From: Chelatococcus sp. YT9
GTDB taxonomy: Bacteria; Pseudomonadota; Alphaproteobacteria; Rhizobiales; Beijerinckiaceae
Length of the DNA stretch: 64,000 bases
NCBI RefSeq assembly: GCF_018398315.1
Contig: NZ_JAHBRW010000002.1
Location: forward strand, 1,100,637 to 1,164,636
Reading direction: 5' to 3'
Shown piece by piece: positions 27,116 through 31,770 of the stretch. Each line of letters begins with the position of its first letter. The first letter of the stretch is position 1. The notes below the pieces were generated by a model. It had not been told where the DNA came from and did not search any database. It was given only the letters and a program-made list of their open reading frames with translations. The position numbers and the translations under genes are program-made.

Positions 27116-28419
27116 GCTGGGAGGCTAGCCTTCTCATTTACGTCGCCTTGCTCGGGGTGATGATCTCCATCGGCGTTCCGATGGCGTTGGCCATGGGCCT
27201 GACGGGTATTGTCGGGCTCACGCTCCTGCATGGCACGACGCTCTGGCCGAGCCTAGGTGACGTGGTCTGGAACTCCACAAACTCGTTCACGCTCGTTGCA
27301 GTGCCATTGTTCGTACTGATGGGTGAGGTACTGCTTAAGAGCGGTGCGGCCGAACGGTTTTATTCCGGCCTCAGTGTGTTGATGGGGCGTGTGCCCGGCG
27401 GGCTCGCGCAGTCCAACATTCTGGGCAGCGCCCTATTTTCGGCGATCAGCGGTTCATCCACCGCAACTACCCTGACTATCGGCACCGTCGCGATCCCGCA
27501 AATGCGGAAGCGCGGCTACAACGATCATCTCACCTTCGGCACCCTGACGGGCGGCGGCGCGTTGGGGAACCTTATTCCGCCGAGCATCTTTCTTCTTGTC
27601 TACGCCGCGGTCGTCCAGGCATCAGCGGTCGAGTTGTTCGTGGCGACCATCGTGCCCGGCCTTCTCGCTGTCGCGATGTTCATGGTCTATGTCGCGATCA
27701 AGGCGCGGGCGAATCCCGGCTGGGTTCCGCCGCGCGGCGAGCCCGCCGCCCCGCGCGATATCGGCCGCGCGCTCGTTGACTGCATACCGATCTCGGTGCT
27801 GATCCTGTCAATCATCGGAGGCATGTACGGCGGGATCATGACGCCGACGGAGGCTGCCGGGTTCGGTTGCCTCCTGGCGTTCGTCATCGCTGGCCTGTAT
27901 CGGCGTCTCAACCTTGCAGCGATCCGCAGCGCCTGCGTGAACAGCATTTCAATCACCTGCGTGCTCTCGCTCATCATCATCAATGGCCAGATCCTCGGCC
28001 TAGCCGTTACTCACGCCGGCATAGGCGTCGGAGTCTCCAGGGCGCTCGTCGAGATGGGGCTGTCTCCGTTCATCTTTTTTACTTTTCTCTTCGTCCTGTA
28101 TCTCGTCCTGGGCGCGATGCTCGAGGGCGTCTCGATGATGCTGCTCACGGTGCCGGTGCTCTATCCGACGCTCAAAGCAATGGGCTTTGATGACATCTGG
28201 TTCGGCGTGTTCCTGGTCATTCAGGCGGAGTTGGCGCAGCTTTCGCCGCCCATTGGCCTGAATCTCATTGCCGTGCAGTCGGTGGCGCGCGACGCGAAGC
28301 TGGGCCTCATCATGAGGGCAACGCTGCCATACGCGATCATGCTTAGCGGTTTATGTTTTCTTCTCTACATGCTGCCTGAGCTTGCGCTTTGGCTCCCTCA
28401 AATGATGCGGGGACAATAA
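27112..28419 (+). CDS. TRAP transporter large permease (DctM family)
   Basis: A 435-residue polytopic membrane protein with about twelve helices. DctM landmarks include IGVPMALAMGLTGIVGL near the N-terminus, NSFTLVAVPLFVLMGEVLL, ISGSSTATTLTIGTVAIPQM, GGGALGNLIPPSIFLLVYA and, near the C-terminus, IQAELAQLSPPIGLNLIAVQS. It is the sodium-driven transport subunit of the TRAP system whose receptor is at 20612-21619. It is the last gene of the cluster. Confidence 0.94.
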   Translation: MSWEASLLIYVALLGVMISIGVPMALAMGLTGIVGLTLLHGTTLWPSLGDVVWNSTNSFTLVAVPLFVLMGEVLLKSGAAERFYSGLSVLMGRVPGGLAQSNILGSALFSAISGSSTATTLTIGTVAIPQMRKRGYNDHLTFGTLTGGGALGNLIPPSIFLLVYAAVVQASAVELFVATIVPGLLAVAMFMVYVAIKARANPGWVPPRGEPAAPRDIGRALVDCIPISVLILSIIGGMYGGIMTPTEAAGFGCLLAFVIAGLYRRLNLAAIRSACVNSISITCVLSLIIINGQILGLAVTHAGIGVGVSRALVEMGLSPFIFFTFLFVLYLVLGAMLEGVSMMLLTVPVLYPTLKAMGFDDIWFGVFLVIQAELAQLSPPIGLNLIAVQSVARDAKLGLIMRATLPYAIMLSGLCFLLYMLPELALWLPQMMRGQ

Positions 28420-28714
28420 CGACAGCGCGTGATCCACAGTGAGGCCGGCATTGACTTGCCCTCGACACCGGCGGAGCCAAAGCTAATTCCCATTTGCGGC
28501 CTTCACGGTTTCGCGCGTTTTGTTGACGATATCGGCGTCGTCGACTCGGTTATTGGCCGGCCTTTCCTGTCAAAACGCAAGCGCTCGGTGGAGCCGAGCC
28601 TGCTCCATCTCGAATGAGAACAAAAAAAGAACATTATTGTCCCCCAAAGGTGACAAAGCCGGCCGACGGCTAGTCCTTCTTGAACGAACGAGTCCGACGA
28701 AAAGGTAGGGTTCG
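28420..28714. other. Leader region before the radical-SAM/UdgX operon
   Basis: Nearly 300 bases without a convincing gene. A 62-codon open frame just after the dctM gene shows no family resemblance. The only clear element is the GAAC-N7-GAAC direct repeat described separately at 28618-28632, in a locally A-rich stretch. Confidence 0.5.
28618..28632. promoter_or_regulatory. Candidate LexA (SOS) box, GAAC-N7-GAAC
   Basis: GAACAAAAAAAGAAC is an exact GAAC-N7-GAAC direct repeat, the form of LexA binding site known for alphaproteobacteria (equivalent to GTTC-N7-GTTC). It lies 83 bases upstream of the radical-SAM gene start, in a position suited to repression of the promoter of the two-gene repair operon. 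The match is exact; DNA-damage control of this operon is inference. Confidence 0.65.
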
Positions 28715-29962
28715 ATGCCACACCTCAGCCTCGCTGAGAAACTGTCAATTCTCGCCGACGCGGCCAAGTATGATGCGTCTTGCGCCTCATCTGGCGCCAA
28801 ACAGCGAAATTCGCGCGATGGCAAGGGCATCGGCTCCACCTCCGGCAATGGCATCTGCCATGCCTATGCTCCTGACGGACGGTGTATCAGCCTGCTCAAA
28901 GTTCTGCTGACGAATAGTTGCACCTTCGACTGTCATTACTGCATCAATCGGAGTTCCTCGAACGTCCGCCGCGCGCGTTTTACCGTCGACGAAATCGTTG
29001 ATCTGACGCTGGATTTCTATCGTCGGAATTATATAGAAGGACTTTTCCTCTCATCCGGCATCATTAATACGCCGGATTACACAATGGAACAAATCGTCAG
29101 AGTGGCCAAGGCGCTGCGCGAAGATCACGATTTCCGCGGCTATATTCACCTCAAGACGATTCCTGACGCGGCAGCAGACTTGGTGACCCAAGCCGGGCGT
29201 TATGCCGATCGCGTCTCCATCAACGTCGAGCTTCCCACCACGGGCGGGCTTCGGCGGCTGGCACCCGACAAGTCGGAGAAGCGGATAGAGGGCGCGATGG
29301 CCAAGATGCGCTCCGCGATCGACGAGGGGCGGGATGCCCGCAAGCGTTATCGTTCCGCGCCGAATTTCGCCCCCGCTGGCCAGTCCACGCAGATGATCAT
29401 CGGCGCCGATGCAGCAACCGATCGGGAGATCGTGTCGCGCGCTGCCATGCTCTACGACCGCTTCGACTTACGCCGTGTGTACTACTCGGCCTTCAGCCCT
29501 ATCCCAGACGCGAGTGCCGTCTTGCCTCTCAAGCGGCCGCCCTTGATGCGGGAACACCGTCTATATCAGTCCGACTGGCTGATCCGCTTTTATCAATACT
29601 CGCCCCAGGAGGTAAAAGCGGCGGCCGATCCCGACACGGGTATGCTTCCGCTTCACATTGATCCCAAGCTTGCGTGGGCGCTGAGATTCCGGGAGAATTT
29701 TCCGGTGGACGTCAATCACGCGTCCCGAAGAATGCTGCTGCGCATCCCCGGACTTGGTGTAAAGGCGGTCGACTCAATCCTGGCAGCGCGCCGTTGTCAT
29801 AAGCTGAGGCTTGACGATGTTGCGCGCCTCACAACGTCGTTGAAGAAGATTCTCCCCTTCATCATCGCTGTGGATTGGAAGCCAGTGGCGCTGGGAGATC
29901 GGGAAAACCTTCTTCCGCATCTCGTCGCAAAGCCGAACCAGCTTGAGCTTTTTGCATCTTGA
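28715..29962 (+). CDS. Radical SAM protein linked to UdgX (putative DNA modification/repair)
   Basis: A 415-residue radical-SAM protein. The iron-sulfur motif is C69-x3-C73-x2-C76 (NSCTFDCHYCINRS), followed by the radical-SAM barrel with GLFLSSGI (the SAM-contact GGE-like region) and HLKTIPDA. The C-terminal third carries a helix-hairpin-helix DNA-binding segment (about residues 335 to 370, with LLRIPGLGVKAVDSILAARR). This matches the family always found next to a uracil-DNA-glycosylase-superfamily protein (rSAM_link_UDG), distantly related to spore photoproduct lyase. The DNA lesion or base it acts on is unknown. It overlaps the UdgX start by one base (TGATG) and is preceded by a candidate SOS box. 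Confidence 0.9.
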   Translation: MPHLSLAEKLSILADAAKYDASCASSGAKQRNSRDGKGIGSTSGNGICHAYAPDGRCISLLKVLLTNSCTFDCHYCINRSSSNVRRARFTVDEIVDLTLDFYRRNYIEGLFLSSGIINTPDYTMEQIVRVAKALREDHDFRGYIHLKTIPDAAADLVTQAGRYADRVSINVELPTTGGLRRLAPDKSEKRIEGAMAKMRSAIDEGRDARKRYRSAPNFAPAGQSTQMIIGADAATDREIVSRAAMLYDRFDLRRVYYSAFSPIPDASAVLPLKRPPLMREHRLYQSDWLIRFYQYSPQEVKAAADPDTGMLPLHIDPKLAWALRFRENFPVDVNHASRRMLLRIPGLGVKAVDSILAARRCHKLRLDDVARLTTSLKKILPFIIAVDWKPVALGDRENLLPHLVAKPNQLELFAS

Positions 29963-31353
29963 TGCGCGTGATCTGCCTCGATGCCGAAGACGATTTCGAG
30001 GGGTGGCGCAGGGCCGCTCGGTCTCTTGCTACGCGGCGAGTTCCTGCACACGAGGTCCTTTGGCGCGTTGGCGACCAATCTGGGGATTTGTTCGGCCGGA
30101 CGGTCGACGAGGCGAACAGCACCGCACCCATTGCCGTATCGCGTGACTTCCTGGCGCTTTCGCGTCTGGCGATCTTGCACAGGGATCCCGAGCGGTTCTC
30201 TCTGCTTTACGCCCTTTTGCTGCGCATTCTAGATGAGCCGTACTCCCTCCATAATCCCGCTGATCGGCAGGTGCGCCGCGTCGAAGCACTGCATCGCTCC
30301 GTCAGGCGGGATATTCACAAGATGCGTGCCTTTCTGCGTTTTCGTGAAGCCGGCGAAGGCGAGATGAGGCGCTTCGTAGCGTGGTTCGAGCCCGAACATC
30401 ATATCGTCCGCGCCAATGGCGCCTTCTTCGTCGAGCGCTTCACCAATATGCGGTGGTCGATCCTCTCTCCTAAAGGATCGATCCATTGGAGTGGCAGCAC
30501 TCTGTCCGAAGGGCCGGCCGCGCAACGCAACGAGGCTATGGGCGACGACCCTGTCGAGGCGGTGTGGAAGGCCTACTATGCGGCAATCTTCAACCCCGCG
30601 AGGCTCATGCCGGATGCAATGCTGAAGGAGATGCCGAAGAAATACTGGAAGAACATGCCGGAGACGGCGCTTATTCCCTCTATGATCGCTGGCGCGCGTG
30701 AGCGCGAGCGCGGAATGCTTGAAGAGACGCGTACGGCACCGGTTGGCAAACACGGAGCCGAGACCATCGAGCGGCTGCGCGAGGAGGCGCGGTCCTGCCG
30801 ACGCTGCCCGCTCTGGAGGCCGGCGACACAAACAGTTTTCGGCGAAGGACCACACGACGCAAAGATCATGATCGTGGGGGAGCAGCCGGGGGACCAGGAA
30901 GATCGAGCCGGGAAAGTCTTCGTTGGTCCGGCGGGACGGGTTTTCGACCGCGCGCTGCTCGCCGCCGGCATTGACCGCGCTGGCGTCTATGTCACGAATG
31001 CCGTCAAACATTTCAAATTCGAGCTGCGGGGAAAGCGGCGTATTCATGCACGCCCTGGTGCGGGTGAAATCGAAGCGTGTCGCTGGTGGGTTGACCAGGA
31101 ACGCGCGATCGTGCGGCCGAAGCTTGTTATTGCTATGGGCGCTACGGCCGTCCGCGCGTTAACTGGGCGGACAATGCCGGTCGGCTCCGCCCGAGGTAAG
31201 TCGCTTACCCTTGGAGACGGAACGCGGGCGTGGATAACGGTGCACCCGAGCTATCTGCTGCGCCTTTCCTCTCCGGCTGAAGCCGAGGGGGCGTTCTCAC
31301 AATACGTGGCCGACCTGCGCGCGGCGGTTGCGAGCATGACCGATATTGATTGA
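29962..31353 (+). CDS. udgX: DUF4130-UdgX fusion, uracil-DNA cross-linking protein
   Basis: A 463-residue fusion. The first half (about residues 80 to 240) resembles the DUF4130/SAM-linked family (LHRSVRRDIHKMRAFLRFRE, FFVERFTNMRWSILSPKGS). The second half is a family-4-like uracil-DNA glycosylase with UdgX features: C279 and C282 in SCRRCPLW for the iron-sulfur cluster, the uracil-pocket motif GEQPGDQED, the KHFKFE stretch, and the KRRIH loop at 358-362. His362 corresponds to the histidine that in mycobacterial UdgX makes a covalent bond to DNA at deoxyuridine. Motif 2 reads VHPSYLLR. ATG 29962 shares its A with the preceding stop; co-translation with the radical-SAM protein is likely. Confidence 0.93.
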   Translation: MRVICLDAEDDFEGWRRAARSLATRRVPAHEVLWRVGDQSGDLFGRTVDEANSTAPIAVSRDFLALSRLAILHRDPERFSLLYALLLRILDEPYSLHNPADRQVRRVEALHRSVRRDIHKMRAFLRFREAGEGEMRRFVAWFEPEHHIVRANGAFFVERFTNMRWSILSPKGSIHWSGSTLSEGPAAQRNEAMGDDPVEAVWKAYYAAIFNPARLMPDAMLKEMPKKYWKNMPETALIPSMIAGARERERGMLEETRTAPVGKHGAETIERLREEARSCRRCPLWRPATQTVFGEGPHDAKIMIVGEQPGDQEDRAGKVFVGPAGRVFDRALLAAGIDRAGVYVTNAVKHFKFELRGKRRIHARPGAGEIEACRWWVDQERAIVRPKLVIAMGATAVRALTGRTMPVGSARGKSLTLGDGTRAWITVHPSYLLRLSSPAEAEGAFSQYVADLRAAVASMTDID

Positions 31354-31476
31354 AATCATGAGGCTTGGCAGCCTAATCGAAGCACCAAGTTGCTGTGAGC
31401 CATAGCGAATGGTCGCGCGAACGCAACGGCGTGGCGCTGCGGATGGCCGCTAAGTGAAGGCTACGACTATCCCTTT

Positions 31477-31770
31477 TCAGCCTCGACGTACGGCGTTCAG
31501 AATGTTGCGAATCGTATGGGCCAGTTTCTCAACGTCAAAGGGTTTGACAATCATGTCCATCCCTTGAGCTAAGAAGTCTGTTCTAGTGACCGCGTTTGCG
31601 GGCTAGCCCGTCATGAAGAGTATCTTCAAGCCCGGAATTCGCTCGCGCGCGAAGTCTGCAAGTTGCAGGCCATTCATCCTGGCAAGCCCACGTCAGATAT
31701 CAGCAAATCGACGTGGATGCCACTGTCCAATATTGCGAGCGCCGCATTCCGAGTGCCGATGGGCAGCAAA
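31477..31770 (-). pseudogene. Decayed response-regulator receiver domain
   Basis: Reading leftwards, conceptual translation gives a CheY-like receiver split by damage: LDSGIHVDLLISDVGLP, then a one-base loss shifts the frame, MNGLQLADFARERIPGLKILFMTG follows, then an in-frame TAG where receivers usually have TGYA, then ANAVTRTDFLAQGMDMIVKPFDVEKLAHTIRNIL to a normal stop at 31477. The phosphoacceptor Asp (SDVGLP) and the KPF lysine are still readable, so decay is fairly recent. The 5' boundary is approximate. It resembles the small or C-terminal receivers of FixL-type hybrid kinases and may once have worked with a kinase such as 35406-37886. Confidence 0.75.

What the first reader, a model, noticed from the sequence alone, without database searches (positions are those of the whole stretch)
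28618..31353. Radical-SAM/UdgX operon with an exact alphaproteobacterial SOS box
GAACAAAAAAAGAAC is an exact GAAC-N7-GAAC repeat 83 bases upstream of a two-gene operon joined by a one-base stop/start overlap. The first gene is a radical-SAM protein with a helix-hairpin-helix DNA-binding end; the second is a UdgX that can trap uracil in DNA covalently. DNA-damage control would tie this poorly understood pair to the SOS response and suggest they repair or mark a specific lesion together.
Basis: partly seen in the sequence, partly recalled or inferred. Interest (0 to 1): 0.75.

Follow-up and report, generated by a model that had tools for sequence, protein, structure and literature searches.

The report
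SOS-controlled radical-SAM/UdgX DNA-repair operon
A two-gene bacterial operon, coding for a radical-SAM enzyme and a protein that can trap uracil in DNA, carries the switch sequence of the cell's DNA-damage (SOS) response, as nearly all its relatives do, so the pair is very probably a damage-induced repair system, as published work had already suggested.

Summary
GAACAAAAAAAGAAC (28618-28632) lies upstream of a TGATG-coupled operon. In the same genome the identical 15-mer precedes recA and an SRAP gene, and a variant precedes lexA. In 29 loci of other classes, 19 have E. coli-type CTGT-N8-ACAG instead, 5 a one-mismatch form, 5 neither. Controls are near zero. SOS control of this system is already reported for Alphaproteobacteria, Verrucomicrobia and Bacteroidetes (PMC8565304) and predicted in a Clostridium (PMC3828012). 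DUF4130 is the constant partner (84 of 84 radical-SAM genomes); UdgX is optional (63 of 84). SOS control tracks the radical-SAM/DUF4130 operon: 0 of 17 stand-alone UdgX genes, one of them in this genome, have an exact box. The operon probably reached this genus horizontally. Best model: an SOS-induced radical-SAM/DUF4130 enzyme acting on damaged DNA, with UdgX as an added covalent uracil/abasic-site trap. The chemistry is inferred; LexA binding is untested.

The parts
28618..28632 (+). LexA (SOS) box GAACAAAAAAAGAAC, direct repeat GAAC-N7-GAAC
   Evidence: exact match; identical 15-mer upstream of recA and SRAP in the same genome; inside a conserved island in sister genome G015; exact box in 101 of 104 alphaproteobacterial loci
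28715..29962 (+). radical-SAM protein rSAM_link_UDG (TIGR03916), 415 aa
   Evidence: 563.6 bits, cut-off 343.5; PF04055 41.5 bits
28919..28942 (+). radical-SAM cluster cysteines C69-x3-C73-x2-C76
   Evidence: C in 213, 214 and 214 of 215 aligned proteins
28781..28885 (+). three further conserved cysteines C23, C48, C57: possible second Fe-S cluster (inferred)
   Evidence: C in 212, 213 and 213 of 215, the rest gaps
29702..29800 (+). helix-hairpin-helix-like segment, residues 330-362
   Evidence: PF12836 18.5 bits, below the cut-off of 27; weak profile match to a ComE operon protein, E 0.1; this region is modelled with pLDDT 80-94 as helices, in an otherwise poor model
29962..31353 (+). DUF4130-UdgX fusion protein, 463 aa, coupled to gene 1 by TGATG
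30187..30663 (+). DUF4130 domain (residues 76-234; TIGR03915 covers nearly the whole N-terminal half)
   Evidence: PF13566 133.8 bits, cut-off 27; TIGR03915 199.3 bits
30670..31350 (+). UdgX domain with GEQPG (306-310), KRRIH (358-362), HPSYLLR (428-434)
   Evidence: TIGR03914 305.9 bits; best PDB matches are UdgX entries, M. smegmatis where named
31045..31047 (+). codon of H362, equivalent of the cross-linking H109 of M. smegmatis UdgX
   Evidence: H in 177 of 178 fused homologs; role of H109 from PMC10359453 (passages)

Best explanation
This is a LexA-repressed, DNA-damage-induced operon. Supported by sequence: the host has LexA with a box of its own; the operon carries the same box as recA; the box is kept in nearly all orthologs and is replaced by the E. 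coli-type LexA motif in most loci of other classes. Inferred: on damage RecA-stimulated LexA self-cleavage frees the promoter, and both proteins are made together. The core is a radical-SAM enzyme that probably binds DNA through its helix-hairpin-helix end and may carry two Fe-S clusters (C69/C73/C76 and C23/C48/C57); with its constant partner DUF4130 it acts on a damaged base or sugar in DNA (inferred). [quoted passage not shown] smegmatis UdgX, not tested here). UdgX is most likely an accessory module that captures uracil or abasic sites exposed by the core reaction or by SOS polymerases.
For: Box and operon. One LexA gene over the cut-off, with GAACACATAGAGAAC 135 nt before its ATG. recA with the identical box 120 nt before its first possible start; SRAP with the identical box 24 nt before its first possible start. 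A/T-spacer boxes 17 against 1 control. Orthologs: exact alphaproteobacterial box in own 1/1, rest of family 51/54 (other 3 one mismatch), rest of order 16/16, rest of class 33/33, genome contigs 79/80. Other classes: CTGT-N8-ACAG exact 19/29, one mismatch 5, none 5. Cross-occurrence 0/29 and 0/183; gene-body control windows 0/212. Sister genome G015 keeps the 15-mer within a conserved stretch while more distal upstream sequence has diverged. DUF4130 in 84/84 rSAM genomes, rSAM in 84/87 DUF4130 genomes, UdgX in 63/84. Stand-alone UdgX with exact box 0/17; operon remnants L239, L255, L256 have one, 3/3. H362 in 177/178, R360 in 178/178. Six cysteines conserved in at least 212 of 215.
Against: No binding or expression data for this organism. 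The bare GAAC-N7-GAAC pattern is not enriched in the genome (177 against 208). No sigma-70-type promoter was found in 28400-31500. Five of 29 loci outside the class have no LexA-type box. Several A/T-spacer boxes of this genome lie beside genes with no repair label. The HhH is below Pfam's cut-off. The rSAM model was poor (mean pLDDT 56), so the second Fe-S cluster could not be tested in space. DUF4130 had no match among the 50 structural hits shown of 451 nor a significant one by sequence, so its role is unassigned.
Confidence: 0.7

Rival explanations
1. Uracil-centred base excision: the operon is a uracil-DNA-glycosylase repair system that clears misincorporated bases left by SOS polymerases, with the radical-SAM protein as helper (close to the proposal in PMC8565304, which names ribonucleotide misincorporation).
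For: UdgX domain with all active-site motifs; published interpretation; the fused form dominates in the sampled Alphaproteobacteria.
Against: 21 of 84 rSAM genomes have no UdgX over the family cut-off (one of them, G573, has a diverged UDG-like half below it), yet DUF4130-only operons outside the class still carry SOS boxes; the rSAM-DUF4130 pair is the constant part; stand-alone UdgX genes have no exact SOS box (0 of 17).
Confidence: 0.22
2. The radical-SAM protein serves to undo UdgX-DNA cross-links.
For: Tight operon with UdgX here.
Against: rSAM without UdgX over the cut-off in 21 of 84 genomes, and UdgX without rSAM in 15 of 78.
Confidence: 0.05
3. The box is a chance match and the operon is not under LexA.
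For: One bare match per window is what chance gives, and the bare pattern is not enriched in the genome.
Against: Conservation in 101 of 104 alphaproteobacterial loci with 0 of 212 control windows, and a switch of motif type outside the class; identical to the recA box of this genome.
Confidence: 0.02
4. The operon acts on incoming or mobile DNA (uracil-containing phage DNA, plasmids) rather than on chromosomal lesions.
For: Mobile distribution: 158 plasmid records, 10 phage-labelled records, 6 of them with at least 80% of the protein, probable horizontal entry into this genus. SOS control would also respond to phage attack.
Against: None of the six neighbouring genes scanned against Pfam looks like defence; the PADLOC library was not scanned.
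Confidence: 0.06

Closest known systems
COG4277-COG1573 (radical SAM/HhH plus UDG) SOS operons of Verrucomicrobia, Alphaproteobacteria (Caulobacter) and Bacteroidetes
   Same: Same two-gene system under LexA-type control (PMC8565304, passages and reference list parts 1-2); Caulobacter vibrioides has TIGR03916 and TIGR03915 among the control genomes
   Different: Different lineage; here the box is identical to the host recA box and starts 97 nt before the ATG. The Verrucomicrobia and Caulobacter papers were not held, so which Caulobacter genes were tested was not seen
Clostridium acetobutylicum CAC3343-CAC3344
   Different: Partner there is called a protein of unknown function; the passage mentions no UDG
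Mycobacterium smegmatis UdgX
   Same: GEQPG, KRRIH and HPS..LR motifs (PMC10359453, passages); best structural match
   Different: About 210-230 residues long in the PDB entries; here fused behind DUF4130 and in an SOS operon
Spore photoproduct lyase and PA0069-type radical-SAM proteins
   Same: Radical-SAM proteins tied to DNA damage; a PA0069-type gene in this genome also has a box of this kind (L006)
   Different: Different families: one search lists neither TIGR04070 nor NF033668 for the window protein at E 0.001

Membership tests
alphaproteobacterial LexA regulon | GAAC-N7-GAAC (GTTC-N7-GTTC) box near the start of the operon | tested here: met
   motif for the class as quoted in PMC8565304
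alphaproteobacterial LexA regulon | host encodes LexA and uses this motif at lexA and recA | tested here: met
alphaproteobacterial LexA regulon | box conserved in orthologous operons | tested here: met
   101 of 104 exact in own family, order and class, other 3 one mismatch; 79 of 80 in genome contigs
alphaproteobacterial LexA regulon | LexA binding and RecA-dependent induction | not testable with these tools
   needs a shift assay and expression data
rSAM_link_UDG (TIGR03916) | score over the curated cut-off | tested here: met
   563.6 against 343.5 bits
rSAM_link_UDG (TIGR03916) | radical-SAM C-x3-C-x2-C | tested here: met
   C69, C73, C76
rSAM_link_UDG (TIGR03916) | C-terminal helix-hairpin-helix | tested here: inconclusive
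   PF12836 18.5 bits, cut-off 27
TIGR03915 / DUF4130 | score over the curated cut-off | tested here: met
   199.3 against 112.25 bits
UdgX | TIGR03914 score and GEQPG, KRRIH, HPS motifs | tested here: met
   305.9 against 189.95 bits; motifs
UdgX | covalent cross-link to abasic DNA | not testable with these tools
   H362 present; activity needs an assay
spore photoproduct lyase | match to the SPL model (TIGR04070) | tested here: not met
   no hit listed at E 0.001

The most novel reading that the evidence does not exclude
The SOS-controlled unit is not a uracil-repair operon but a radical-SAM/DUF4130 enzyme of new DNA chemistry: two Fe-S clusters, direct reversal or radical cutting-out of a lesion, with UdgX added in some lineages as a covalent trap and, in sphingomonads, a hemerythrin added as a third operon member.
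Probability: 0.4. Interest if true: 0.8.

Novelty: new member of a known kind. Interest (0 to 1): 0.45.

Why it matters
UdgX is used as a tool for uracil detection and base editing (listing), but the papers that I saw give no clear role in bacteria. Placing it in an SOS operon whose constant part is an uncharacterised radical-SAM/DUF4130 pair says where to look: at DNA damage, and at the radical-SAM enzyme first. The near-universal box, its change of type outside the class, and the lack of a box at stand-alone UdgX genes make the damage-response link directly testable in Caulobacter or Sphingomonas.

Tried and rejected
Chance origin of the box was considered and rejected, although the bare pattern is not enriched genome-wide. 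A UdgX-driven reason for SOS control was tested with stand-alone UdgX genes and rejected (0 of 17); only about 250 nt upstream of the stop-bounded reading frame was scanned, for exact boxes, so a box in front of a longer operon or an imperfect one would be missed. I fetched 18 of the UdgX places that stand apart from an rSAM operon; two others over the cut-off were not fetched (G509 C5, beside a second, divergent DUF4130-like gene, and G383 C118, a fragment at a contig end). The rSAM structure prediction was too weak to use, so no fold search was made with it. The DUF4130-UdgX model was better (mean pLDDT 78.2, low in the 352-366 loop), but the 50 PDB matches shown, of 451, are 49 UDG-superfamily entries and one phage DNA polymerase, and a search of viral models gave UDG-type hits at the top; DUF4130 gave no significant sequence match to a solved structure. 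A scan of viral contigs found 2 relatives among 35 candidates; not pursued. The two primary papers on SOS control of this system (Verrucomicrobia 2016, Caulobacter 2008) and a 2004 LexA comparison were not held, so prior art rests on statements in PMC8565304. Among the 12 passages shown of a Caulobacter repair-gene paper (PMC1839093) four UDG-family genes are listed and this pair is not mentioned. An UdgX structure paper (PMC10776899) holds none of the words DUF4130, radical, SOS or RecA. One alignment used L104 in the wrong orientation, and read L233 in contig orientation; both were redone.

Rows dropped before counts: L115 (same place as the window), L206 (same gene as L126), L182 (contig starts inside the gene) and L065 (under 40 nt upstream; its box is seen). 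Start codons more than 20 nt off the expected place were replaced by the expected start, except in L183. In some searches L126 and L206, one gene, are both counted. The family set (56 of 199 genomes over cut-off) and the phylum set (84 of 398) share 6 genomes; the genome contigs set repeats some species of the others (L090 and G412 for one) and is mostly Sphingomonas, so loci are not independent events. No DUF4130 was found inside the fetched stretch for 11 of 215 rSAM loci; for two of these, G418 and G430, it lies about 3 kb further on, for the other nine it was not sought further. Of 26 proteins counted as not fused, three (L065, L124, L187) are cut off by the end of the stretch.
Full report
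1. Observation. The box GAACAAAAAAAGAAC is at 28618-28632, 82 bases before the ATG at 28715. Gene 1 (28715-29962) and gene 2 (29962-31353) share one base, TGATG. Gene 1 matches TIGR03916 with 563.6 bits; gene 2 matches TIGR03915 (199.3 bits) in its N-terminal half and TIGR03914/UdgX (305.9 bits) in its C-terminal half (Pfam DUF4130 and UDG).

2. Is the box more than chance? By itself, no: the bare pattern is found once in the window against 1.74 expected, and 177 times in the genome against 208 for the reversed pattern. The subset with an A/T-rich spacer, GAACAWWWNNNGAAC, occurs 17 times against 1 control. Among these 17, the window's own 15-mer occurs three times: here, 120 nt before the first possible start of recA (571.5 bits to TIGR02012) and 24 nt before that of an SRAP gene. 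Other places lie next to a PA0069-type radical-SAM gene and an RmuC gene; the rest lie next to genes with no repair label (such as DusA, a cyclase, DUF6456, DUF3572, an amidase and a LigT-like gene) or to none that I could name. The genome has one LexA over the cut-off, with GAACACATAGAGAAC 135 nt before its ATG.

3. Within about 150 nt upstream an exact GAAC-N7-GAAC or its complement is present in 1 of 1 (window), 51 of 54 (rest of family), 16 of 16 (rest of order), 33 of 33 (rest of class), with one mismatch in the 3 left over; and in 79 of 80 genome-contig loci, the last with one mismatch. In 29 loci of other classes the exact E. coli-type box CTGT-N8-ACAG is present in 19, with one mismatch in 5, absent in 5; that this is the E. 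coli motif is recalled. The alphaproteobacterial box is in 0 of 29 loci of other classes, the CTGT box in 0 of 183 alphaproteobacterial loci; in gene-body windows of the same size both are 0 of 212; four control motifs give 1, 2, 1 and 0 of 212. In sphingomonads the box mostly starts 17 nt before the ATG. In the sister genome G015 (87% protein identity) the same 15-mer sits in a run of 22 identical bases, while sequence further upstream has diverged.

4. What the constant part is. In the 398-genome sample, 84 genomes have the rSAM over its cut-off, 87 have DUF4130, 78 have UdgX. All 84 rSAM genomes have DUF4130; 3 DUF4130 genomes lack rSAM; UdgX, anywhere in the genome, is in 63 of 84 rSAM genomes and in 15 genomes without rSAM (tabulated). 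One of the 21 without, G573, has a diverged UDG-like half below the cut-off. Of 204 DUF4130 proteins found beside the rSAM gene, 178 are fused to UdgX; of the 29 from other classes 18 are not. DUF4130-only operons still carry the box: reading together, 11 of these 18 have an exact and 5 a one-mismatch CTGT box.

5. Does SOS control follow UdgX? I fetched 18 UdgX places that stand apart from an rSAM operon plus two DUF4130-UdgX genes from genomes without rSAM. Of the 18, 17 have no DUF4130 beside them and 0 of 17 have an exact box within about 250 nt; the eighteenth (L239) is a broken operon, a DUF4130 remnant with UdgX, and has a box; both DUF4130-UdgX genes (L255, L256) have a box near their start. 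The window's genome has such a stand-alone UdgX gene on its largest contig, with KRRIH and without an exact box (L254). So SOS control belongs to the operon, not to the UdgX family.

6. Conserved chemistry. H362 (equivalent of the cross-linking H109 in M. smegmatis, PMC10359453, passages) is H in 177 of 178 fused proteins and R360 is R in 178 of 178. The cysteines C279, C282 and C373 of the UdgX half, probable Fe-S ligands, are all lost in 28 of 178, 26 of them in the window's family, and all 28 keep the histidine. The rSAM protein has C69, C73, C76 and three more cysteines, C23, C48, C57, conserved in 212 to 213 of 215 with gaps in the rest; a second Fe-S cluster is my inference. The helix-hairpin-helix has only sub-threshold support.

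7. Origin. In a quick tree of 163 of the 216 rSAM proteins (31 of the 80 genome contigs rows) the window and G015 lie in a 44-row group (SH-aLRT 100) otherwise made of rows from other families, the named ones mostly sphingomonads with one Gluconobacter, one Rhodovarius and two Pararhodobacter, away from the other members of the window's own family. Two further genomes of the genus have no match. The operon lies on a 2.0-Mb contig apart from the 4.4-Mb contig that holds recA and lexA, and relatives are on 158 plasmid records. Horizontal entry is the natural reading. Three of the four nearest rows outside the genus also have the box 94 to 100 nt before the ATG (L018, L019, L020), the fourth, L062, at 57, all with other spacer letters.

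8. Prior art. PMC8565304 (passages and two of three parts of the reference list) states that SOS regulation of a putative UDG-based repair system was reported in Verrucomicrobia and Alphaproteobacteria, and extends it, as COG1573-COG4277, to Bacteroidetes. PMC3828012 (passage) predicts LexA control of CAC3343-CAC3344 in C. acetobutylicum. PMC3765255 (passages) calls DUF4130 a predicted mutagenesis-related enzyme associated with radical-SAM and UDG proteins. PMC13130816 (passage) lists an Acinetobacter gene of this name as raised on desiccation. Ten literature searches listed no paper that I recognised as a biochemical study of this rSAM or of DUF4130; of the five papers that name the rSAM product I saw passages of two and only the listing of three. 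The library holds only open-licence papers, so this is a weak negative. That the family's own notes describe it as paired with TIGR03915 is my recollection, not a call.

9. Mechanism. Supported by sequence: LexA-type promoter; operon coupling; constant pairing of rSAM and DUF4130; UdgX optional with an intact nucleophile. Inferred: induction by RecA/LexA; DNA binding; radical chemistry on a DNA lesion; UdgX as a trap. I rank an rSAM-DUF4130 core with UdgX as accessory above a uracil-centred system, because the box and the pairing follow the core.

Noticed in passing
34 of the 80 genome-contig loci (for example L021, L035, L043, L092) and L186: A hemerythrin-like gene of about 158-161 aa (PF01814, tested on one fragment) lies between rSAM and DUF4130-UdgX in 35 loci; in 21 of 35 the DUF4130-UdgX start lies within 20 nt of its end; only 1 of 35 has an exact box of its own.
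   Followed up: partly
L190, L191, L195 (upstream of rSAM): Three loci of one genus (g165) lack any LexA-type box but share the inverted repeat GGTCTCATCCAATGAGACC (outer bases altered in L190) shortly before the ATG: perhaps another regulator.
   Followed up: no
window 31492-31689 (-): Decayed response-regulator receiver remnant with a stop inside, just downstream of the operon.
   Followed up: partly
G000:C1:3753146-3753664 (L254): Second, stand-alone UdgX gene in the same genome, KRRIH intact, no exact SOS box.
   Followed up: yes
DUF4130-UdgX proteins of 28 loci, 26 in the window's family (e.g. L099, L126): UdgX halves that lost all three cysteines C279, C282 and C373 while the histidine nucleophile is kept in 28 of 28 (L126 and L206 are one gene counted twice).
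   Followed up: partly
L233, upstream of lexA: Beside the exact box lies a near-repeat GTTCATGATTTGTTT, possibly a second, weaker LexA site.
   Followed up: no
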